Positions 1 through 49,623 of a stretch of 64,000 nt of DNA are shown one piece after another (position 1 is the first letter of the stretch; every line of letters starts with the position of its first letter). This DNA is from Gyromitra esculenta (Eukaryota; Ascomycota; Pezizomycetes; Pezizales; Discinaceae), in the NCBI GenBank assembly GCA_038503075.1, contig JBCAML010000013.1, forward strand, positions 1 through 64,000. Direction: 5' to 3'. The translations under genes were made by a program, and so were the position numbers. The notes beneath the pieces are model-generated. The model saw only the letters and a list, made by a program, of their open reading frames with translations, searched no databases and was not told the origin of the DNA.

Positions 1-98
1 CCCTAAACCCTAAACCCTAAACCCTAAACCCTAAACCCTAAACCCTAAACCCTAAACCCTAAACCCTAAACCCTAAACCCTAAACCCTAAACCCTAAA
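1..98. repeat. Telomere, 14 perfect CCCTAAA heptamers
   Basis: Fourteen exact copies of the heptamer CCCTAAA run from the first base, followed by CCCCCGG and unique sequence. The G-rich strand would read TTTAGGG towards the chromosome end, so the window starts at a left telomere. This heptamer is the Arabidopsis-type repeat; most filamentous ascomycetes have the hexamer TTAGGG. The array is seen directly; its real length may be longer than the sequenced part. Confidence 0.97.
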
Positions 99-506
99 CC
101 CCCGGATTAGGAAGGTGGTACAACCCTTGGCATCTTGGCACGGAACGGAACGGATGTTATCTCCGAGCCGGCTTGGCGTCTTGGCGTCGGACTTAGCGCC
201 GGCCGCCGAGATCGCCGCCGACGCCGACCCGGGCCAAGGATAGCCGACCGACCAAACAGCCGCCCCCTGCACGTAACACTGCATCGTGGCCGAGTGCATC
301 ACCCACATAGTATCACCTGCATGTTTCTGGGTTTACCCCAACTTCTCCCGCATACCCGGATATTAGATCACGCCTACACAGGTTGAGATTACCCAAAAGA
401 GTAACCAAACTCTGCCGCCGCTAGTCAATCAAAATTGCATCATCCCAGCTCGGCCGAGAGGCCTTCCCCTCGGATCCCCCTAACATCCACATCCGCCAAG
501 AGGGTT
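99..506. other. Subtelomeric sequence without a gene
   Basis: GC-rich at first (around 180-240), then mixed sequence. Short open frames exist on both strands but none resembles a known family or has a plausible exon structure. I see no gene here. Confidence 0.6.
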
Positions 507-3715: not shown

Positions 3716-4273
3716 TTAGGCGAATGGCATGACTTGATATTCGTATAAGCCGTAACGGGTACGGAAGGCTGTTTTCCACTCATCTCCTTCCGCAATGCGT
3801 ACTTGATGATAGCCGTCTCGAAGGTCTAGTTTGGTATACCATTGTGCTTTGGCTAATCGATCTAGCGTTTCTCTGATGAGCGGGGAGGTATACCGGTCCT
3901 TGACAGTGATTGCATTTAGGCCTCGATAGTCCACGCAGAGTCTCAATGAGCCGTCAGCTTTCTTTACAAAGAGGACGGGGGATCCGGCAGGGGAAGAACT
4001 GGCGCGAATAAAGCCCTTTTCCAAGTTATCCTCGATGTATTTTTTGAGAACAATAAGTTCCTCTCGGGACATTCCATAAAGGGGGCCAAACGGTGCGTCT
4101 TTGCCTTCCATTAGCTGTATCTTATGATCGTACGAGCGTCGTGGGGGTAAGCCTTGGGCTTTGCTTTTATCGAACATATCTAGGAATTCGTGGTACTTGG
4201 ATGGTATCTTTGCCTTCCATTCTTCCTTGCTGGTTTTTTCCTCTAGGATTTTATTGATCTCGTAGAGTGACAA
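3716..4273 (-). pseudogene. Reverse transcriptase remnant (fingers and palm)
   Basis: This is the longest open piece of pol, 185 codons. It contains the fingers motif [20 protein letters not shown] and the palm entry [20 protein letters not shown], both diagnostic of Ty3/gypsy reverse transcriptase. It stops just after the YQVMPF motif. The catalytic YxDD box would lie downstream in the damaged stretch 3350-3715, where reading frames change repeatedly. Confidence 0.92.
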
Positions 4274-4340
4274 TGACAGCCGTAAAGAGCTGCCACAGAG
4301 TCCCTAAGCTGGCGACACCACAACGACACGATACGTTGCC

Positions 4341-12426: not shown

Positions 12427-13034
12427 TTACAAAACAATAACCGCCAACCCCGCACCCAATGGCCATGACACATTATCATTATCACCCTCTGATACTACTT
12501 CAAACCCTAGAGTTGTTGCAGACGCTGGGCACGGAAATGTCGGCGTTGGCCCATCCCATGTTCCCACAGATCCATCTGGAGTGACAGTAAAGATTCCATA
12601 TGAGACATTCCTATAGGGCCGACTTGTATATGTATTTGAGGCTGAGATAGGACCGCCGACGCTGAAGAGCTGCACTTTCAGCGACCCGGTGGAAGGCCAA
12701 CCGTTTGCAAAAGAGAAGCTGCAAGTTTTGCCAGCGTAGCCACCGGGGAAGGGATAGGAGAGGAGAGAGTTGGTCTCGTGTTGGATGCCTAGTTCGGTGA
12801 CCTAGGGGAATGTTAGTATTGTTGTTCAGTTCTCTGGCGAGTATGTGGTTGGGAGCTTACCCTAAAGACGTAGACGTCACCTTTGACGGTACCCTTATCG
12901 GGGGTAAAGATGTTGACGGCCAAAGATGGGTGGAATGTCGCCACAGAGCGCTCCTCGATCTCAATCTCAGGAACTGGAGCTGAAGATACGAAGCCAGCGA
13001 TGGCAAGAAGAGTAGTGAAAATGGCCAATTTCAT
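12427..13034 (-). CDS. Secreted protein with But2-type C-terminal domain
   Basis: Two exons, 12861-13034 and 12427-12801, joined in phase 0 across a 59-bp GTAAGC...TAG intron, give 182 residues. The N-terminus MKLAIFTTLLAIAGFVSSA is a clear signal peptide with an AxA-like cleavage region. The C-terminal half has the pattern of the fungal But2 domain: a Cys-containing CSFSFANGWPSTGSLKVQLF stretch, then PDGSVGTWDGPTPTFPCP and a final SWPLGAGLAVIVL strand. Such proteins are usually small, extracellular and of unknown function; the name comes from a ubiquitin-like-protein binder in yeast. Nothing suggests intracellular action here. Confidence 0.85.
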
Positions 13035-14901
13035 ATTGAGTGCGTGGATGTTGGAAGACGGGAGAAACTGTTGGAGATTGCTACAAAGACTTAGGATGTA
13101 GTAGACTGTTGGTTGTCTGAGTGAGTGAGAGGAAAAATACAGCGGGGGATTCGAGAGTATTTATCTCAATTTCAGAAACAGTGGGCTGAGGCTTTTTTTT
13201 CTTCCAGGCTGTGATTATTGATAGAGGATAGTAAAAGCTCACCTCACCTTCTGTGTTCCCATTACTCTTAAATTGCAGAGTGATACCATTCGTTCTAAGC
13301 ACGATCTCCATACCCAGCTACTAAGCATTGAGGTGGTGGGTCGATAATAGAAATTAGCCTGGGCGCAGTCACACTACTCGTAAATGACTGACGCTTGTGC
13401 ACCGGGCTGGATCCGTGCCCCATACGCTTTTTGCAATTTTGTATGATATGCAGAGCTAGCCTGGTGCAAAACGCCAGTCAATTACGAGTACAATAGCTTT
13501 AGAGCATGCAATTTTTTTTTCCCTACCAAGCGCAGGGCATCGTGAGAACTCTTGTATTACAGGTCATATGGTGTTTTAATGTTCACCCATATATGCTATA
13601 TTTAACCCTATTTTTAAGACTTATCCTGCTACTGCGGCTCTTGGGCTCGAGGAGATCGCTGCTCGAGCAGTAAGGATTCCTTCCGATTCGACCGCTTCTT
13701 GTGACTGTGTTTCTAAATTTAAGATCCTTCAGCTTATGGTGACACGGAATTGTAGTGACACAACCTTATGTGATACAACGCTACCACATAATTGGAACTT
13801 ATTGACTACTCTACATGCCGATATTGCTTGATTCAAATCGCGGGGAGATTTCACTTGAATAGTATGAGCGGAAGTGTAGTTTTTACTAACCGTATACAAA
13901 CTGGCGGGTTGCGCAAAGGTGGCTTTCGCTGTAACATTATGGAGCCAGATCTTCAATTCCCAAGGGTTTCCTAGACGTCATCCTCCCATATAAACCTTTT
14001 TAACACAAACCTCTCTTGATCTAATAACTAAGTGAACCAAAGCTCAGTCAACGCGCAAACGGATATCGGCACGATTCCGGGGCTGAGTAACATTCAACAT
14101 GTGGCGAGGATATCAGCGGATCATGTTGCATGACGCCCTAATGCGAAATACCCAATATTCCCGCTACAGCACGCGATTTCCCTTCGTGTCTGTTGTACCA
14201 TGCGTATTAGCTCACTTCAGTAATCGAGTTACTCTTAAAATGAGAGCACGCAGCCACGGTACTTTTATAGCCGACAAACTAGGTTCTCTCTCTCTGGTAA
14301 TACATCCTATAATTGGCACGATGCCGAAGCTGAAAGGTTTCGGACTCAACTTGAGGCTGCTTTACCCACCACCGTACACACTGCTGGGGATCGGGAACCT
14401 AGCGGGCATTGTCGTCATTCGTTATAATTAACCTTAGTCCGTTTAAAAACGATGGCAAATGCTCCAGGAATTTAGTACTCAAAATGTAAGCTGTTAGAGG
14501 GCCTTGGTCAATTGGAGGGTAAGATGAATTGCAGATTTTTGGGCTAGAAAACCCTACATGTCATTTGTATGTTCGGGTACTAAATGTCTTCTCTGAGTTG
14601 ATGTCGCCATTGGACACTAATCATATCCAGAGTAATAAAAAAGTCCCTAAAATATCGTAAAGAAGCATCAAATAGTCCAACCAAACCCTTGCAAGCTCTC
14701 TCATGTAATTACAGAGAGTGAGTTAAGCGGAGGATTAGGTATACGATGCATACGGCTTACCTTAACAAGCAACGGCATCGTGGGTCGATGTCCTAGCGCA
14801 AGAGCACTAGGGGAGTAAGACAAGTATAATTAAATATAGTAATATTTTATATCGAGCTATTTATCAAATTAGGCACTAATAGCCGATTGAGGCTTAAGCT
14901 T

Positions 14902-15932: not shown

Positions 15933-18660
15933 ACTAGCCTTGCACATTTTATATCCACAGAGATTGTGTGGGGGAATAAATGTATTACCCATGCACTGCC
16001 ATTGTACCATAGTGCTGGGGGTACCACGTGCACCAGAAAACTACAAGACCACGAACTATACGTTTCCCATTCACCACACGCACATAATCCTTTCTTACTT
16101 TCACAAACTTCTTACCTGGCGCAATATACCTGAGAAATAGATCAGTGGAGGTCTTCTACGAAAGACCGAGCTTCTATTAGCTCAGTAGGCCTGCGAGTAA
16201 AGTAGATATACATAGTTATATACCTGAGCTTAAATCCACACTCGAGGCTGCTCAATTGATCAAGCACCAAACTGGTTTCTATATGATTGCTACACGCTAT
16301 CTTTAAATTCAACAAATACCGTAAATTATCGTTAGTAACGAACTCGACTAGGCCAGGCTATAACTAAATACTTGGATAATATCTTCAAGTAAAAAAGGCA
16401 TTGATCGACGCTTTGATTTCTGCTGACACGCAGTATTCACCTCAAAGGGTTTCGAGGTCAGGCTGATTTAGAACTAGCTAGGTTAGTTCTTTATCACCGA
16501 GACTTTCTACAGTTTTCTCAGCTGGTAGTAGATAAATATTTTTAAGGGCCGGCTGAATTTAAGCAATCGTATCAACGAGAGTAACAATGCTGTATTACTA
16601 AGCTATTTTTATCATTCGAAACCGGCGATCGAGATTTAGGACTTCGTTTACACAATAGGTACTATTCATATACTCTTCGATCAAACCTCTCAGAGCACTT
16701 CGAACACGTAGAGAGTGGGCCTCAATAGGCGGTTCGTCCTATAGTAAGTTAATGGTCGCTACGCGTGGTATCGTGGACTGCAGTGGTTTAATAACATAGT
16801 GGCACAATATCTTAGCAATAAGGAACAGGAACACGGGATGTATGTGCATTGGGGCTCAATTATAACCAATAAGTAGTTGGGCACTAACGTGTATTTCGTC
16901 CATCCAACCAATGTAAGATACAATAGTAACCTAAATTTACCTCTCCTCCCATTAGATATAATGTTGTAACACATATGCATGCCCAATCAGAAAAAAATAG
17001 TTATTCAATAAATCAGTGCAGCAACACACTTACCGATATCGGGACAACTAAGTTCATGATTAGCATTTTAACTAACGCCGCAAAATCACCCACCTATTTT
17101 CTATTGTTATTTGAATTAAATTTTCCCTATATATACAGAACGCGAGCTGGTGTGATATGTGGTTAAAAACCGTCGACTCTGCCATAGATTTAGTTCTCTA
17201 ACCGGTCGCTAGTTGCAGGCTTAGTAAGAAATGACAAAAGTGAATTAGCAATGCAGATCTAAGTTTTTAGGTGTAGAGAACATATATTTCTAATTTCGCG
17301 TACTTATCGTAGCTTTGTTTTCAAGGTTAGCGTATTCTGTATGGCGAACCTGGCAAGGTATTCGTAGGTTAACCCTCAATGCTCTCTGACGTATGGCTAC
17401 TCCACTCGCCCTATCGAGACTTATAACTTAGTTGGCCATGGTCAACTATCGTCGCGTTGCTAATTGTTAATATCTGGATCGTTACCGACCCTGATTTTAA
17501 CCGTAAATTTCCGCTTACCAATAATAGCTTAATAGCCAAGAGCTTCATCTTCATGAAGCTAATATGATATAAAATATGGACAAATGTATAATTATTCTGA
17601 ACCCTTTAGTTATAACAGTCTCCAAGGGATGTCGATGATGAAACTGTGAGAGTAGGAATGGGAGATTTGGAATTAGATCAATGATTGAAAACCAGTGGGA
17701 TAGTCTTTCCGAAGGTAGCGTACAGCACTGGCGGAGAGAAGTTCAACCTAGGGATGAGAAGAAAAAGGGGAAATTGGTATGTTGGGCGTTAGGGGAGGAG
17801 GAGAGGAGAGGAGAATATGTAAGCCGAGATCATTTTTTGAGGGGATTGGGGTAGTTTTGTTTTTTATTGTGTTGTGCTGTTTTATGGTTGTGCTTTTGCG
17901 TTTTAAGGGCACCATAACCTACAGGTTGTATGTATCCATTGAATAAACAAATAAAGAATAAGCCTCCAAAGGATCCAGGTTAGCGGTAGCTACCTCATAT
18001 TAAAATCTCCGTATTTTTTTATTTTGTTATTAAGTAGGAGACTTAAAGGCGGGACGAATAACGTCCCAGATTCGTTACCGACCATGAGATACGTAGCAAA
18101 CAGCAGTTCTTAGTAGTGTAAAGCAATCAAAGGAATAACTAGATTCGGCGAGTGATATATAATGATTCAGAGTTTGGGTTCGCGCAGAAACAAACCCGTT
18201 CGTAGACGCGGACTGGGAGATTGCTGGGAGTGAATCCAAGATTTATAAGACGGTATTTAGTGTATGCGGACATGTGGAGATGGATACCTTGGTGGCCATT
18301 AATTGTGCAGGCGCGGTAGCTTGCGAGAACGTGTGGGTAGGGTACGTACTCTGCTCTTGAGCACTCTCTAGCTGGGCGGGGCCTATCAACGAGTGGAATC
18401 CTATGAGCCTACGTGTAGATAATCTTTCAATCTAAAAGGTCCGTGTCCGTCCAACGTTCAGCATATCATATTAGTGGACAATTAGGAGGGTTCAGTATTG
18501 AAAATTTAACTTAAGCAATACAGACCCCCCTAAATAGCATCTCATTGGCTCGAGGGATCCTGCAAGAAGAAATGAAAGTAAATATGGTAGATTCGTTTGA
18601 TTTACGAAGTCATGGCTTTTACAACGAGATCTCCACCACCTCTTAAATATTTCTTTATCT

Positions 18661-20064
18661 TTAGCAGCCCATACAATAACCAACGCCGTCAAAAGTATTC
18701 ACCATCTGACTTCGGATTTCTGTTCGGGCTTCTGGGTCAGTGATCAAATATGTCGCTGAATATCATTGGTTGCTTGTGGAAACACTTACACCTTCAACCC
18801 ACATGGAGTCGTGGATCGTCGTGGGGGATCCTGAAGCTAGAGCCTTTACTTCACGAGCTTCTAAGCCAGGAATGGACTCTGCGAACGCCTGTGGTGATTC
18901 CCGGTAGGTTTTGAGAATCTCGGGATCCAGACTTAAACTCTCCGTCACCTTTTGCATGGCCGGAGACGCGCAATACGGCCTGTAATCGGCTGAGATAGCG
19001 CCCTTTTCAAGAGCGGCGACGGCACTAATCTCCTGTGGTCCGTATGTCTCCTCCTCTAGTGCTAAATAATGGTGGACGGGAAGAGGGGGAAATTTTGGCG
19101 TCTCGTCTGGGCCCGCTTGATGACCGAGGACGATCAATTCTCCAGCGGGCGAAATTGGCAACAGGTCCTTCGGGGGGAGGTATAACGTGCAATTGGGTGT
19201 GATTTCTTTCTTGATATCTGCCTTGTACAGATCCGAGATGGTGTGACGGTTGATGACAGGGTCCTCAAGTGGTGAGACCGCGGCCATGTAGCTTACTATT
19301 GGATGATCCGGTCCGTAATCCTTTTGAAGTCGATCGACTAGATGGTCGAATTTCTCGTTCTAGATTTCAAAGCTGCCGGTGAGTAAGGAGACCTGAGCAC
19401 GGTTGGCCCACACTAGAACGGCAAACTCACTTCAAAGGCGGTGAAATTGTACTTCCAGTGTCCGAAACAAGAAGCCTGGAAGATCACGACATGACAGGAG
19501 GTAGCAAGTGGCCGAGCGCGATACACGATATCCGACGCTTCGACGAGCTGAGCCCCCGGGAAGGACGGGTTAATAAGCAAATCTGCAAACAAGCAATCCT
19601 CGGCTGATATACCGGGCAACATGCGAGCAGCATAGCCTTCATTTTTGGCGATCGCAATGGCACGGCGAGAAGGGTGAACGAAAATGCCCGGGTGGCCGTA
19701 AAAGACAGCGACGACGTTAAGTCCTTTCCGAACTTCGAGCAGGATGACCTAAACCCGGATGATTTTTAGCCCTGGGGATAATTGAATCGGAAAACGGGAC
19801 TGAGAATCCACCGACCTCAGCCATTTGAACAAAGGCATCTGGCCTCTCCTTCAGATCCGAATAATATCCGTATATATCGATTGCGTTTTTGTTTTTACGT
19901 TTGATGAAGCCTTCAGTGGAGGGATCGCAAACACAATAGAGCACCGTGTCGGCCCTCTCGACGTGCATCACCGCCTCAAGCGTGAGCTGGGAAACACTAC
20001 GTATTCCTGAGCCCACGACGACCAGACTGCCCTTCTTGGCAGATGACTGCGATTGAGCAGACAT
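18661..20064 (-). CDS. Borosin-type peptide alpha-N-methyltransferase/precursor (OphMA-like)
   Basis: A fused enzyme-substrate: the N-terminal SAM-dependent methyltransferase methylates backbone amides of its own C-terminal core peptide, which proteolysis later releases. Exons, all minus: 19816-20064, 19431-19748, 18792-19359 and 18661-18731, joined in phases 0, 0 and 1 for about 401 residues; OphMA of Omphalotus has about 417. Seen: SAM-loop VVVGSGI (16-22), KNKNAIDIYGYY (57-68), FYGHPGIFVHPS, and MLPGISAEDCLFADL of the tetrapyrrole-methylase fold. Near the C-terminus are a SIPGLEAREVKALASG clasp-like segment and a short Gly/Val-containing tail that would be the core. OphMA catalytic Tyr63, Tyr66 and Arg72 are matched by Tyr65, Tyr68 and Arg74, but Tyr76 is Phe78. 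The coding sequence is intact. Last-exon splicing is the least certain part. No recognised tailoring genes lie beside it. Confidence 0.9.
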
Positions 20065-21893: not shown

Positions 21894-22925
21894 CTATAAA
21901 GCACCAGCTCCCACTAATGGATCAACCCATTCTTGAGTCCCTCTCCCCTGCCACCCACGACGCTGTTTTACTAGACGATTCTGCATTGACCAACTCTGCC
22001 CGAATAGCAATCGATTGATGATTGCTAAGTAGCCCCCTTCATCAGCCGCATGCAAGGCTGCTCCCCAGATGGTGTTTGCATTCGCGTTCACACCGACGTT
22101 GCTCAAGAATAGTTGGTTGGGCGTTTTCAGATGGCCCTATGCAGCAGCTGCTTGTGATGCCGCTGGGACTGCTGGTTTCACCGTACCCGACGTTTGGGTT
22201 GCATCGACACCCGCACCACTCTCCAGCAATCGATTCACCGCTCGTAGATGATCTCGAAAAGCAGCTGCCTTCAAGGCCGTTTCCCAGACGATGCTTGTAT
22301 CTACGTTCACATCAGCCCCTCTCGATCAGCCAATCAGCCAACTTGAGTTGACCTTTGGTAGCTGCAGCCACCTTCCGCTGCTGCTTGCAGTACCGTTCGC
22401 CGGCGATAGTCGTCTGATTGCTTGGCATTAACATCTGCACCGTTTTCGAGTAGCCTGTAGAGCACCTCAAGATGGCTCTCTGTGGCTGCGGCTTGTAAGG
22501 GCGTGAGGTGGTGCGCTTGAGTGTTGACATTAGCGTTTTTCCCATCAAAAAGTCGACTATTTCGAGATGGCCGCCTGCCACCGCCGCCTATAACGCAGTC
22601 TGCCTCGAAGCTGCGGCTTGTAGGGCTGTCATGCCGAAAGTATCCCCAGGCTGAGGGTGATCAGTATTTACAAGTTCGACCAATCGATTCACTCTCCCGA
22701 GATAGCCTTCTTTAACTACTGCTTGCCACGCTGTTAACCCAAACCTTGATCCTTCAGGTTCTTCTCTGGGCGCAGTGACATGTTCGAGCAAGCAGCTGAG
22801 TACTCTGAGATTACCTCCTGCCACCGCTGTTTACAGTACGGTAAGACCGCATATCGCTGCTGGTAAAGCATGGATATCGGCTCCCACTCTGAGCAATCGA
22901 CCCACTACCTCGAAGTAACCCCAGG
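21894..22925 (-). pseudogene. Ankyrin-repeat pseudogene
   Basis: Reading the minus strand from 22925 gives successive ankyrin units: YFEVVGRLLRVGADIHALPA, AVAGGNLRVLSCLLEHV, AVAGGHLEIVDFLMG, LKLADWLIERGADVN, LRAVNRLLESGAGVDA, and ALHAADEGGYLAIINRLL. In-frame stops interrupt it near 22833 (TAA), 22588 (TAG) and 22136 (TAG), and there is at least one frameshift in 22312-22580. Two of the stops sit where related units have Gln in an LQxAV motif, so they look like CAA/CAG to TAA/TAG changes. Such proteins in fungi often carry an F-box or NACHT N-terminus; none is recognisable here. Confidence 0.88.
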
Positions 22926-29477: not shown

Positions 29478-31946
29478 TTAGTATTTCTCAGCAGGCACTG
29501 GTATCCATCCTGATAAGGCTTTCCTTTTCTCCTCCTCGTTGGACTTTGCCAACTCCTCCATTTCCTGTTGCTTTTTATCCCTTACAGCTCTTGTAGCTTC
29601 GAACCACTTTGTGTCGGCGTACTGATGTCTCGCCAAATCTTTCATCTTCATCAGTCCAGTCTGCACATTCACCTCACGAGCCCTAGCCATATCTGATTTC
29701 AATTGTGCCAGTTGTGCTTCGAATCGAATCGTGAGCTCCGTCAATTTACTTTGCTGTTGCTGATGGAGGGTATTCATTTGCTCCGCCTGTGTTACGTTGA
29801 ATCTCTCCATGAGGATTCTCTGCCTCTCTTCTCTGTTTGGTCGCCCCTTGAGATGTGACTGAAGGCTGAACCAATATTCGTCCTCATCAGCTACTTGTTG
29901 TCTGTCCAATTGTTCGCGATCCTGTTGCATTAGGATCCTCTGCTCTTTCAACTCATTTTCCCGCCTTTCCTCAAGAAACATCGTATCCGCAGCGAGCTTC
30001 CTTTGACTCTCCGCTTCGCACATCATACGCTCTGCTGTAAGCTTTTCCCTCTCATGCCAATGTCTCTCACTAAGCATTTCCCATTGTTTTCGATAGAGAC
30101 TATCGATCTCTTTTCTGAGATGATCGTACTTCGTTTTGACTATCCTCAGCCACTCTTCCTCCATTGCTCTCTCCTGCTCCGCAAGTCGTTCTCTTTGCCT
30201 GGCTTCTTCCCGTACACGATGTTCAGCAGCAATCCTTAATGCATCCTCCCTTCTAATCCGCTCTTCCTCTTCTCTACGGATCATGGCTTCGGCCGCGGCT
30301 ATTGCAGCTCGGACTTCCGCTTCCTCTCGTTCCTGGGCATCCTCTGGCAAATTCTGTACTTCCAGGTAATTTTGATTTCCCTCATCGTTGCAGGCACAGG
30401 TTTTCCACAGTGCGCCACAGATGTAGCAAAATTCGGCGCCACATTTACTACATTCAGTGAGAAATTCTCCCTCTTTTTTAAACTAGAATGCCGGTATAGA
30501 CCTACCAAGTCATATGCTCACATCCCGAAGAACGTTCAACTAGAGTACGACACTGAAAGCACCGGCGCCATCCTCGACGTTCACCCTCCTGCAGCGTGGC
30601 CTGCAATGCGAAATCTTCAGGACAATCTTCTTGGGCTGGATGTGCGGCACTTCGACAGGTCTTACACACGGCCACCTTACATCGGGGACATGAAACCTTG
30701 ACAGCTGTGGTGGGTGGTATCCATGCAGAACACGATGGTTGTGGACAGTATATCCTACTATCCGGCGGTGTTGCGTATTCTTTCGCTTTTTGGCTATACG
30801 CCTGGTAGTCCTTCCTCGATAATGCACTCTTAATGGTCCTGAGGGGAATTTCTTGGATGCAGCAGCGCGGAGGCCAAAGGGACTCGTCCTGAATAGCAGT
30901 TCTGCGATAATAATTAGCAAGCACGAATAAAGCTTTACGCTGGTACCACAAATCTCGCTCTTCTGTGAATTCCATACTTGACCAGTGTTTCGAAGCAGCA
31001 ACGGCAATATTTATGTTGGCACGCCAAAGTCACCAACTTCCGATCCTTGTGGTCATCCATACACGAAGAACACTCACTTATTTTAGCCAATTCATGAGTT
31101 AGCTTTTTCAGGATCCCATACACAAAAAGCAATACTTAACGGGTCAACCACCAACCTTTCACTTTTTCGTTTACTCAAAAATCTCCGAATCTGCTCTGCA
31201 CGAGGGGATACCGGCATAGGCACCACGGTTTGATCGCTCGGAGGCAGATGTGAGAAGTACGTGTATGGTGAGTAAGCGAGGGAGCCAACTGTTATGAACT
31301 CCTGTTTTACACCCAATCGTCTTTTCGATCCCTTCGAGCTCGATGAAAAAATGGAACCGGATAGCGAACGAGTATCTGTTGGTGAGCTAGGTGACGTTGG
31401 ACTCTCCAGCTCCACCGCACCCCTCGTGTCTGATAATGTGGAATTCACGGATATGCGAGGCCTGTGTTTAGACGTTTCTGGTTGTAGCGAGGACAGGACT
31501 TGGATGCCATCAACAAAAACCTCCGGAGCAAGTTCACCGTAGTCGGGCTTCTGTAGCCTCGAACCTATGTCCGTCGTCACCGTCGCCATCGAGTTGATAG
31601 ATTCTTCCGTGGCAACTTCATTCCGCAGAGTCCGCAAGACACCATCAAACCAATCAGCAAAAGAACTTTCTCCCAAACTGCATCTTTCCTTGTCGGTCCA
31701 AATAAGCTCTTTTGGCGGATCGTAGCGCGTCCACCAACTCCCTGAAAGATCTTCATCTGAAAGAAGACTCAGATCGATTCCAGAAACGGGCTCTAGGGTG
31801 CTATACACTTCTTCGACTCCGGACGAGGAACTCGACGCTTCCAGGTTCTCTACTGGAGCTGCAGCCCCGATAACCTCTATACCCTTCCCTTTAGGGCTCG
31901 AGGACAGGATTGGAGGTTCCGTGAGTATAACATTTAAACTCTGCAT
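29478..31946 (-). CDS. RBR-type (RING-IBR-RING) E3 ubiquitin ligase
   Basis: Exons 31141-31946, 30978-31076, 30506-30901 and 29478-30447, all joining in phase 2, give about 756 residues. RBR ligases take ubiquitin from E2 onto a RING2 Cys and then pass it to a substrate. Seen in order: a Ser-rich N-terminal region (1-265); RING1 with ECSSCMDD and CQHKYCRCC; the IBR with CPQPSCSAW, CPRCKVAVCKTC and HPAQEDC; and RING2 with CFQC, GCEHMTCKCGAEFCYICG and CAC. After RING2 comes a 300-residue Glu/Arg/Gln-rich coiled coil (RREEEERIRREDALRIAAEH). The likely catalytic Cys is the one after HMT, and its codon is split by intron 3. Intron 1 (GTTAAGT...AAG) uses a less common acceptor but is the only join that keeps RING1 in frame. 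Substrate unknown. Confidence 0.9.
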
Positions 31947-47905: not shown

Positions 47906-48651
47906 GCAGAATAGTCAAGGACTCGGAAATACGCTATGTGAATATTAGATTATCGGGAGTAGTGACGCTGGAAAGGGTTCGTTTTTGATCAATTACCGAT
48001 ATACAAATGTACTAGGATGAATATCGGATGTTTCAGGACCATTTTCTGCGGTATGCGCATCAATAGTGATTCAGGCCTCATGTGAGCCCATACTTGGGGT
48101 AGGTCCGCAATTATTTACCAAACTAGAGCATTAATATGGCTAGTCGGTCTAGGTCCCACGGAATTGACAGAATGTACTGTGCTGTGCACATATAAAAATC
48201 TACAATTTTGGTAACATGTACATGTACTTTTACAAATGCTGGCCAACCAGAAGAGTATTTCGTTAGCTAATTGGACTAGAGTACTAACAACCGGAATTGC
48301 TGCCGCATATAGTTATCTCAGAAGTAGATTTTGAATCTTTACATCTACCGCGGGATTTGTGGGAAGCACGGGCTTGTCACTATATGTATGTACGCAATTA
48401 TAAGCGGGGCTGGATTGAGTTGATGTTGAGAGTACAAATCTGTTTGGTGATGGTGGGGCCTGTTTGTTGGGTGGCTACTTGCATGCCTCTGCGTGGATTT
48501 CCCAGCACTACAAATAACGACTGCCAAGCTATGTAGGTACACACGTGTTTGTTAGGTGCCAAGACCTGTATTCTTGGTACGGAGGTGGGGGTGGGGTGGA
48601 CATCGAGTTCCAATCCACATCACAGCTGCCAGCCAACAACCATACCTCGTC
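47906..48651. other. Intergenic; no supported gene
   Basis: Short frames only. The last 100 bases carry a GGGGGTGGGG-type stretch before the F-box/ankyrin start. Confidence 0.55.
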
Positions 48652-49623
48652 ATGTCTCTGCTGGACCTCTCCAATGAGCTACTCTTGGAAATCGCGGGGT
48701 ATCTTGATCCATACCCGCTCAGCTGCTTCCTCCCCGCTAACCGCTTCGTCGCTCGTCTTCTGACGCCTCTTCTCCACAAATTCGCTCTTGAGGATGTAGA
48801 TGGGGTGCCGGCTCTTTTTTGGGCCATACGGCAGGACCATGAGCCGTTGGTCCAACTCCTGCTGGAGAAGGGTGTTGATATTGATGCGCCGTATAGCTGG
48901 GATCTCTCGACCCCCCTTCACGAAGCTGTGAAGCAGAACCGCAAAGATATCATCAACATTCTACTCGAAAGAGGAGCAAACATCGATGCGCTAGACGCCG
49001 ACTGCTACCCGCCGCTTTTCTACGCCATCCAGCATGAGAAAGAATATACCGTCACCATGTTGCTGGATGGAGGAGCAGACATGTGGTTTGGGGATGAGGC
49101 AGAAAACCCCAGATCTGGCCCAACAGCACTCCATCTAGCTTGTATGAGCAGGAATTATAATATAGTCGAGTTAATTCTACAGGGAGCGTGGGTTAGGGGC
49201 CAAGAAGCGGGGATTGATTGCCAACAGGAGGGAAAGGGGACGGCACTTCACCAGGCGGCGAGGGGCGGGTATGACGATATAGTGCGCTTACTTCTGGAGA
49301 GCGGAGCAAATGTCTCTCTATATGATGCTGAAGGAAACTCGCCACTTCATTATGCGGCTGCAAGTGGGCTTGGGGGGAGTGCAGTCGAGCTTATGTTGAA
49401 CAAAGGAGCAGGTGTTGATGATCTGAACGAGTGCAACTCTTTTACACCACTTCATCTTGCGGTAAAGTATGGGAATCTAGGGGCAGTCAAGGTGTTACTG
49501 GAATACGGTGCGGACACCCAAAAGGACACATACTACGGAATGACACCACTTTCTCTCGCCAAGTCAATCCAATATCAACCTATAATTGATCTCTTGATGG
49601 GTAATATTCTCGAGGGGCAGTAA
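48652..49623 (+). CDS. F-box and ankyrin-repeat protein
   Basis: A single exon of 323 residues. The N-terminal F-box-like motif is SLLDLSNELLLEIAGYLDPY followed by PLSCFLPANRFVARLL. About seven ankyrin units follow: ALFWAIRQDHEPLVQLLLEK, PLHEAVKQNRKDIINILLER, PLFYAIQHEKEYTVTMLLDG, ALHLACMSRNYNIVELILQG, ALHQAARGGYDDIVRLLLES, PLHYAAASGLGGSAVELMLN and PLHLAVKYGNLGAVKVLLEY. Proteins of this build are thought to be SCF ubiquitin-ligase adaptors, with the ankyrin part choosing the target; the target is unknown. The start at 48652 begins directly with the F-box; an earlier in-frame ATG (48556) lacks family features. The decayed ankyrin gene at 21.9-22.9 kb may be a relative. Confidence 0.93.
   Translation: MSLLDLSNELLLEIAGYLDPYPLSCFLPANRFVARLLTPLLHKFALEDVDGVPALFWAIRQDHEPLVQLLLEKGVDIDAPYSWDLSTPLHEAVKQNRKDIINILLERGANIDALDADCYPPLFYAIQHEKEYTVTMLLDGGADMWFGDEAENPRSGPTALHLACMSRNYNIVELILQGAWVRGQEAGIDCQQEGKGTALHQAARGGYDDIVRLLLESGANVSLYDAEGNSPLHYAAASGLGGSAVELMLNKGAGVDDLNECNSFTPLHLAVKYGNLGAVKVLLEYGADTQKDTYYGMTPLSLAKSIQYQPIIDLLMGNILEGQ

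What the first reader, a model, noticed from the sequence alone, without database searches (positions are those of the whole stretch)
18661..20064. A complete borosin precursor-methyltransferase in an ascomycete chromosome end
The protein has the N-terminal methyltransferase, the clasp-like segment and a short C-terminal tail in the order known for OphMA, the omphalotin precursor. No stop or frameshift breaks it, in contrast to its neighbours. Borosins were first characterised in basidiomycetes; ascomycete members are known mainly as predictions, as far as I recall. An intact gene between a minisatellite region and a pseudogene field suggests it is kept by selection or arrived recently. Its product would be a new N-methylated peptide.
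Basis: partly seen in the sequence, partly recalled or inferred. Interest (0 to 1): 0.93.

Follow-up and report, generated by a model that had tools for sequence, protein, structure and literature searches.

The report
Ascomycete borosin gene, probably broken
Near a chromosome end of a fungus related to morels and truffles lies a real gene for a self-methylating peptide precursor, but a key active-site tyrosine is a phenylalanine and no typical peptide core can be read in frame, so it probably makes no such product.

Summary
The gene is real. Three minus-strand exons (20064-19816, 19748-19431, 19359-18790) encode a fused fungal borosin methyltransferase plus clasp, 55% identical to a Wilcoxina protein and 45% to OphMA, in a supported clade of ascomycete proteins. 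The host is a Pezizales fungus: RPB2 is 97% identical to Morchella and 95% to Tuber. The window starts at a telomere.

That the gene is complete, unbroken and makes a new N-methylated peptide is not supported. None of 284 enumerated GT..AG choices reads the one strongly core-like stretch, ILLTALVIVWAAK, which starts directly behind a TGA (18701-18699). (2) Residue 78 is Phe where OphMA has Tyr76; of the 120 listed relatives 116 have Tyr and none Phe, and OphA Y76F showed no methylation (PMC6108569, passages). A second copy on C11 is decayed further.

Best reading: a degenerating borosin gene with an open methyltransferase-clasp frame and no usable product. Sequence error, unmodelled splicing or an unusual core are not excluded.

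The parts
19816..20064 (-). Exon 1: start and first part of the methyltransferase domain
   Evidence: Open frame, homology to borosins
19831..19833 (-). Codon 78 (TTT, Phe) at the OphMA Tyr76 position
19749..19815 (-). Intron 1, GTCGGT...TTTAG, between QMAE and VILL
   Evidence: homology of the second copy on C11 also breaks after QMAE
19431..19748 (-). Exon 2: middle of the TP-methylase domain (YGHPG, LPGISAEDC motifs)
   Evidence: PF00590 E 1.8e-7, 31.7 bits against cut-off 27.8, for 19440-19748
19360..19430 (-). Intron 2, GTGAGT...ATCTAG
18790..19359 (-). Exon 3: end of the methyltransferase domain and the clasp (borosin-binding) region; ends at 18790 with donor GTAAGT, or 18792 with donor GTGTAA
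   Evidence: Alignment to dbOphMA/OphMA chains through residue 372-375
18661..18731 (-).
18699..18701 (-). TGA directly before the core-like stretch, in the frame set by donor GTAAGT with acceptor 18731 or 18719
18660..18698 (-). Core-like stretch ILLTALVIVWAAK, not read in frame by any of 284 enumerated splice choices
   Evidence: An equally core-like 12-mer occurs in a random 130-nt segment in 167 of 20000 (any frame) and 60 of 20000 (one frame); by hydrophobicity alone 68 and 25 of 3000
1..101 (+). Telomere repeat (CCCTAAA), 14.4 copies
   Evidence: for other contigs

Best explanation
This is a former OphMA-like fungal borosin precursor in an early stage of decay. The methyltransferase and clasp frame is still open. 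However, the tyrosine that holds the substrate amide in OphMA (Tyr76) is Phe78 here, and the C-terminal core that the enzyme would methylate is separated from the frame by a stop. The protein would probably still fold and perhaps dimerise and bind SAM, but release no N-methylated peptide. Shown: open exons, homology, the Phe, the TGA, no read-out of the core-like stretch in the enumerated splice forms. Inferred: that this stretch is the former core, folding, dimerisation, loss of activity and loss of product.
For: Phe78 in the Tyr76 column: 116 Tyr, 1 His, 3 gaps and no Phe in the 120 listed relatives; the solved chain 5n0t carries Phe there too (alignment). OphA Y76F: no methylation after 12 days with SAM (PMC6108569, passages). 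The copy on C11 still has Tyr there. 0 of 284 splice choices read the core-like stretch. The stretch sits where a core belongs: 14 (acceptor 18731) or 10 (acceptor 18719) codons plus the stop behind the Met of IHDSM, against 11, 12 and 17 residues in P0011, P0003 and P0002. The second copy is decayed, with stops. No S9A prolyl oligopeptidase (PF02897) hit in the genome (intron-blind), and no P450 or S9 peptidase hit inside the window.
Against: 379 codons stay open and OphMA Y63, Y66, R72, Y98 and Q172 are kept, so decay is young or some constraint remains. The corresponding change in a bacterial borosin, SonM-Y71F, had measurable though reduced activity (PMC8429565, passage). The core-like stretch could be chance (167 of 20000). 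Departures at conserved columns (5 of 49) exceed those of P0001-P0005 (0-2) but not those of P0024, P0032, P0071 and P0080 (5-8).
Confidence: 0.62

Rival explanations
1. One reading: an intact working borosin whose short tail (...FDGVGYCMGC) is an unusual core that the enzyme methylates.
For: Exons 1-3 are open and most active-site residues are kept. Some relatives (P0032, P0033, P0071) have tails without a strongly hydrophobic stretch. Acceptor 18705 joins the consensus donor to this frame.
Against: Phe at the Tyr76 site, with Y76F inactive in OphA (passages). The tail scores -7.4 on a composition scale on which the 18 relatives it was made from score 5.7 to 22.3. The six relatives on short jgi contigs that I looked at, probably transcripts, have 10-mers of 2.3 or more; other short jgi contig hits were not looked at.
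Confidence: 0.1
2. A working gene mis-read: a sequence or assembly error at the tail and/or at codon 78, or a splice form not modelled, for example one ending in LPYLLSFLLAG.
For: The core-like stretch lies just where a core belongs. One form with the consensus donor and a weak acceptor (TATTTAAG, exon from 18641) reads LPYLLSFLLAG in frame. Donors in this genome are loose.
Against: Two separate errors (codon 78 and the tail) would be needed. LPYLLSFLLAG is less hydrophobic (best 10-mer 2.16) than the six transcript-like relatives (2.3 or more), and its acceptor is poor.
Confidence: 0.16
3. A pseudoenzyme kept for another role: the methyltransferase-clasp protein persists without methylation, or acts on a separate partner peptide.
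For: Open frame of 379 codons beside a decayed second copy. Split borosins with separate substrates exist in bacteria (PMC8429565, passages).
Against: No partner peptide was sought; the active-site change speaks against methylation in trans; selection could not be measured.
Confidence: 0.08
4. Not a borosin but a siroheme, diphthine or other housekeeping TP-methylase.
For: Shares PF00590; the genome has two further PF00590 loci, on C14 and elsewhere on C13.
Against: Best hits are borosin-type proteins over 90% or more of the query, clasp included; tree placement.
Confidence: 0.01

Closest known systems
OphMA, omphalotin precursor of Omphalotus olearius (P0010; PDB 5n0q and others)
   Same: N-terminal TP-methylase domain, then clasp; 45% identity over 93% of the query; Y63, Y66, R72, Y98, Q172 kept
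   Different: Phe at Tyr76; no typical in-frame hydrophobic core; the protein ends 10-29 residues after the aligned clasp, depending on the splice form
Hypothetical protein K440DRAFT_650847 of Wilcoxina mikolae (P0001; Pezizales)
   Same: Closest hit, 55% identity over 90%, same clade
   Different: Tyr at the Tyr76 site; its deposited tail also lacks a hydrophobic core, possibly a gene-model problem (inference)
P0002 (jgi contig of 1598 bases, probably a transcript) and P0003 of Aspergillus tamarii
   Same: Same clade, 53% and 50% identity
   Different: Both end in a hydrophobic stretch (TTVVVVVLLI; TVVVVIVILG), 17 and 12 residues after the corresponding Met
SonM/SonA split borosin of Shewanella (PDB 7ltc and others)
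   Same: Homologous methyltransferase domain, E 2.7e-38
   Different: Binding domain and core on a separate protein; no fused clasp (PMC8429565, passages)

Membership tests
Fused fungal borosin (OphMA type) | TP-methylase domain (PF00590) of the borosin kind | tested here: met
   Exon 2 alone passes the Pfam cut-off; borosin hits over 90% or more of the query; tree
Fused fungal borosin (OphMA type) | Clasp / borosin-binding region fused behind the methyltransferase | tested here: met
   phmmer alignment to dbOphMA and OphMA through residue 372-375
Fused fungal borosin (OphMA type) | Substrate-binding Y63, Y66, R72, Y98, Q172 | tested here: met
Fused fungal borosin (OphMA type) | Tyr76, needed for methylation in OphA | tested here: not met
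   Phe78; 116 Tyr, 1 His, 3 gaps in 120 listed relatives; PMC6108569 passages
Fused fungal borosin (OphMA type) | C-terminal hydrophobic core peptide in frame | tested here: not met
Caveat: 16 of 253 models of at least 365 residues read LPYLLSFLLAG, one with the consensus donor and a poor acceptor
Fused fungal borosin (OphMA type) | Automethylation of backbone amides | not testable with these tools
   Needs mass spectrometry
Fused fungal borosin (OphMA type) | Clustered prolyl oligopeptidase and tailoring genes (common, not required) | tested here: not met
   No PF02897 hit in the genome, no PF00326 or PF00067 hit in the window; introns limit such searches
Siroheme / diphthine TP-methylases | Best similarity to housekeeping methylases, no clasp | tested here: not met

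The most novel reading that the evidence does not exclude
A natural borosin pseudoenzyme: a methyltransferase-clasp protein that lost the amide-holding tyrosine and its own core but is kept for a role other than making an N-methylated peptide, or that carries a new, Cys/Gly-rich, non-methylated core (FDGVGYCMGC).
Probability: 0.1. Interest if true: 0.6.

Novelty: new member of a known kind. Interest (0 to 1): 0.3.

Why it matters
It records a borosin gene in a Pezizales fungus close to morels, with two copies that look damaged separately. It also shows that an open methyltransferase-clasp frame is not enough to predict a borosin product: the active-site residue and the frame of the core must be checked. 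If the protein is kept by selection despite Phe78 and no core, it would be a natural counterpart of the inactive OphA Y76F mutant.

Tried and rejected
Housekeeping TP-methylase: rejected. Gene cluster partners: none found near. RIP as a cause: no clear signal at the gene (TpA/ApT 0.61, other index 1.16; thresholds recalled). Rfam: no match at gathering thresholds in the window. sigma-70 scan: not meaningful for a fungus. Species: an NmrA-like neighbour gave no close named hit; RPB2 gave the order. Papers, searches: 'borosin' (32 papers, 30 listed), 'borosin + Ascomycota' (37: 6), 'Morchella + RiPP + genome' (38: 11), 'OphMA / Y76F' (40: 37, 20 listed), 'borosin / precursor / Pezizomycetes', two of three terms (55: 99, 10 listed), 'telomere + TTTAGGG + Morchella' (56: none). 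No listed title or abstract start names a Pezizales borosin. Passages only were seen in PMC9258550, PMC9233826, PMC11395268, PMC12048977, PMC8429565, PMC6108569 and PMC10455484 (61: no 'borosin'; one Fungal-RiPP cluster, in Sphaerosporella brunnea). The other listed papers were not opened; the 2019 borosin survey cited there was not seen. Structure prediction was not run: the spliced protein is not a letter-for-letter translation of the window, which the tool's description asks for. The splice enumeration used exon bounds wrong by one base; it was redone and only the redo is used.

Full report
What is there. On the minus strand a gene starts at ATG 20064. Exon 1 (20064-19816, 83 codons), exon 2 (19748-19431, 106 codons) and exon 3 (19359-18790, 190 codons) join through introns GTCGGT...TTTAG and GTGAGT...ATCTAG and stay open. 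Exon 2 alone passes the Pfam cut-off for PF00590 (31.7 bits against 27.8). The joined protein hits 1999 proteins at E <= 0.001, of which the best 120 are listed: Wilcoxina mikolae 55%, a jgi contig protein 53%, Clonostachys 51%, Aspergillus tamarii 50%, OphMA 45%. In the PDB it matches dbOphMA and OphMA chains at about 1e-104 over residues 4-375 and 7-372, MTase and clasp included. A tree of 34 rows (33 chosen from the 120 listed, plus the first 378 residues of the window protein) puts it in a 9-row clade with support 100/99: the window, seven proteins of named ascomycetes and one unnamed jgi protein (group labels are mine). Four other ascomycete rows (Whalleya, Xylariaceae sp., Nemania, Penicillium) fall elsewhere. 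The order inside the clade is unresolved; the window's end branch (0.70) is longer than the median (0.49).

Where it is. The window is G000:C13:1-64000 of a 47.1 Mb, 23-contig genome and begins with 14.4 copies of CCCTAAA; the capped listing shows the repeat at the start or at a high coordinate of nine contigs (C1, C3-C10), C13 coming on top. RPB2 of the same genome is 97% identical to Morchella sextelata and 95% to five Tuber species; Morchella sextelata and Tuber aestivum, the two looked up, are Pezizales. No Morchella or Tuber name is among the 120 listed borosin hits.

The tail. After the clasp ends in ...IHDSMWVEG there is a consensus donor GTAAGT (exon end 18790). With acceptors 18731 or 18719 the protein ends ...K(PEQK)SEVRW and a TGA (18701-18699). 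Directly behind this TGA, in that frame, stands ILLTALVIVWAAK (18698-18660). Six relatives on short jgi contigs (P0002, P0013, P0014, P0018, P0022, P0046), probably transcripts, have 2.3 or more; other short jgi contig hits were not looked at.

Chance. In 20000 drawn 130-base segments of the window (those starting inside the gene skipped but counted in the 20000), 167 hold an equally core-like 12-mer in any frame and 60 in one given frame. By hydrophobicity alone it is 68 and 25 of 3000, and 39 of 5000 shuffles of the tail. So chance is unlikely but possible.

Splicing. Of 284 GT..AG choices with donors 18900-18500, introns 35-250 and at least 350 residues, none reads this stretch in frame. 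Of 253 models with at least 365 residues, 16 read a weaker stretch, LPYLLSFLLAG (18590-18558; best 10-mer LLSFLLAGSL, 2.16), one of them with the consensus donor and a poor acceptor. From 20 neighbouring exon pairs of host TCP1 and RNA polymerase genes, 9 gave an intron fitting the expected length within one residue; their donors are loose (GTGCGA, GTGTGT, GTACGT, GTCAGT twice, GTATGG, GTAACT, GTATAT, GTAATA), none is GTAAGT or GTGTAA, and 6 of 9 have G at position 5, as GTAAGT has and GTGTAA has not. One more pair fitted within two residues and 10 gave no candidate. The weak donor is thus disfavoured, not excluded.

The active site. OphMA numbering was set as P0010 index plus one; the residues at 63, 66, 72, 76, 98 and 172 then agree with those named in PMC6108569. 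The window protein keeps Y63, Y66, R72, Y98 and Q172 but has Phe78 (codon 19833-19831) at Tyr76. In an alignment with all 120 listed relatives that column has 116 Tyr, 1 His, 3 gaps and no Phe. PMC6108569 (passages) reports that Tyr76 hydrogen-bonds a carbonyl of the substrate, that Y76F gave highly aggregated protein, and that it showed no methylation even after 12 days with SAM. Against full certainty, PMC8429565 (passage) reports measurable, reduced activity of SonM-Y71F. The window protein departs from the consensus at 5 of 49 highly conserved columns; P0001-P0005 depart at 0-2, but P0024, P0032, P0071 and P0080 at 5-8.

The second copy. The genome search found one more borosin-like locus, C11:348423-349326 on the minus strand, in three pieces with 61, 54 and 42% identity. 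It looks decayed: no ATG in the open frame before the conserved start region, stops in the frame, YGHPG reads YSHPR, and no clasp end was recognised; but Tyr is present at the Tyr76 site. The two copies therefore seem to have been damaged separately (inference).

Surroundings. PF02897 (S9A prolyl oligopeptidase) gives no hit in the genome (an intron-blind search). No PF00326 or PF00067 hit lies in the window. Of 20 frames near the gene tested passed a Pfam cut-off (ankyrin fragment 22334-22660; But2 fragment 12427-12801), 3 gave only matches below it (22312-22587 ankyrin, 29478-30482, 12813-13160) and 15 none.

Literature. PMC12048977 (passages) assigns borosins to Basidiomycota; PMC9233826 (passages) treats them before its section on ascomycete RiPPs and mentions a survey with 50 putative clusters; PMC9258550 (passages) reports no borosin precursor from its screens of four fungal genomes (three ascomycete genera and Rhizopogon). 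Ascomycete homologues are nevertheless in public databases.

Conclusion. The gene is a member of the fused fungal borosin family by domain order and homology, but two features needed for a product, the Tyr76 equivalent and an in-frame core, were tested and not met. The most likely reading is a young, degenerating borosin precursor that makes no N-methylated peptide. Reading errors, unmodelled splicing, an unusual core and a retained pseudoenzyme remain open.

Noticed in passing
1-101 and ends of other G000 contigs: Telomere repeat is TTTAGGG (Arabidopsis-type), not the TTAGGG usual in ascomycetes as recalled; 106 forward and 104 reverse matches of a four-unit pattern in the genome.
   Followed up: partly
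3716-4303: Reverse transcriptase fragment of a retroelement (PF00078, E 1.5e-14); the frame at 1959-2507 looks integrase-like by eye but had no Pfam match.
   Followed up: no
G000:C11:348423-349326: Second, decayed borosin-like copy.
   Followed up: partly
22312-22660: Ankyrin-repeat fragments in two overlapping minus-strand frames (one above, one below the Pfam cut-off), perhaps a frame-broken gene.
   Followed up: no
12427-12801: But2 C-terminal domain fragment (PF09792, E 4.2e-6).
   Followed up: no
48556-49623: Ankyrin-repeat protein in one open frame of 355 codons.
   Followed up: no
18558-18590: A second leucine-rich stretch (LPYLLSFLLAG) in the frame of the core-like stretch, over a strong-looking acceptor sequence TTCTTGCAG.
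   Followed up: partly
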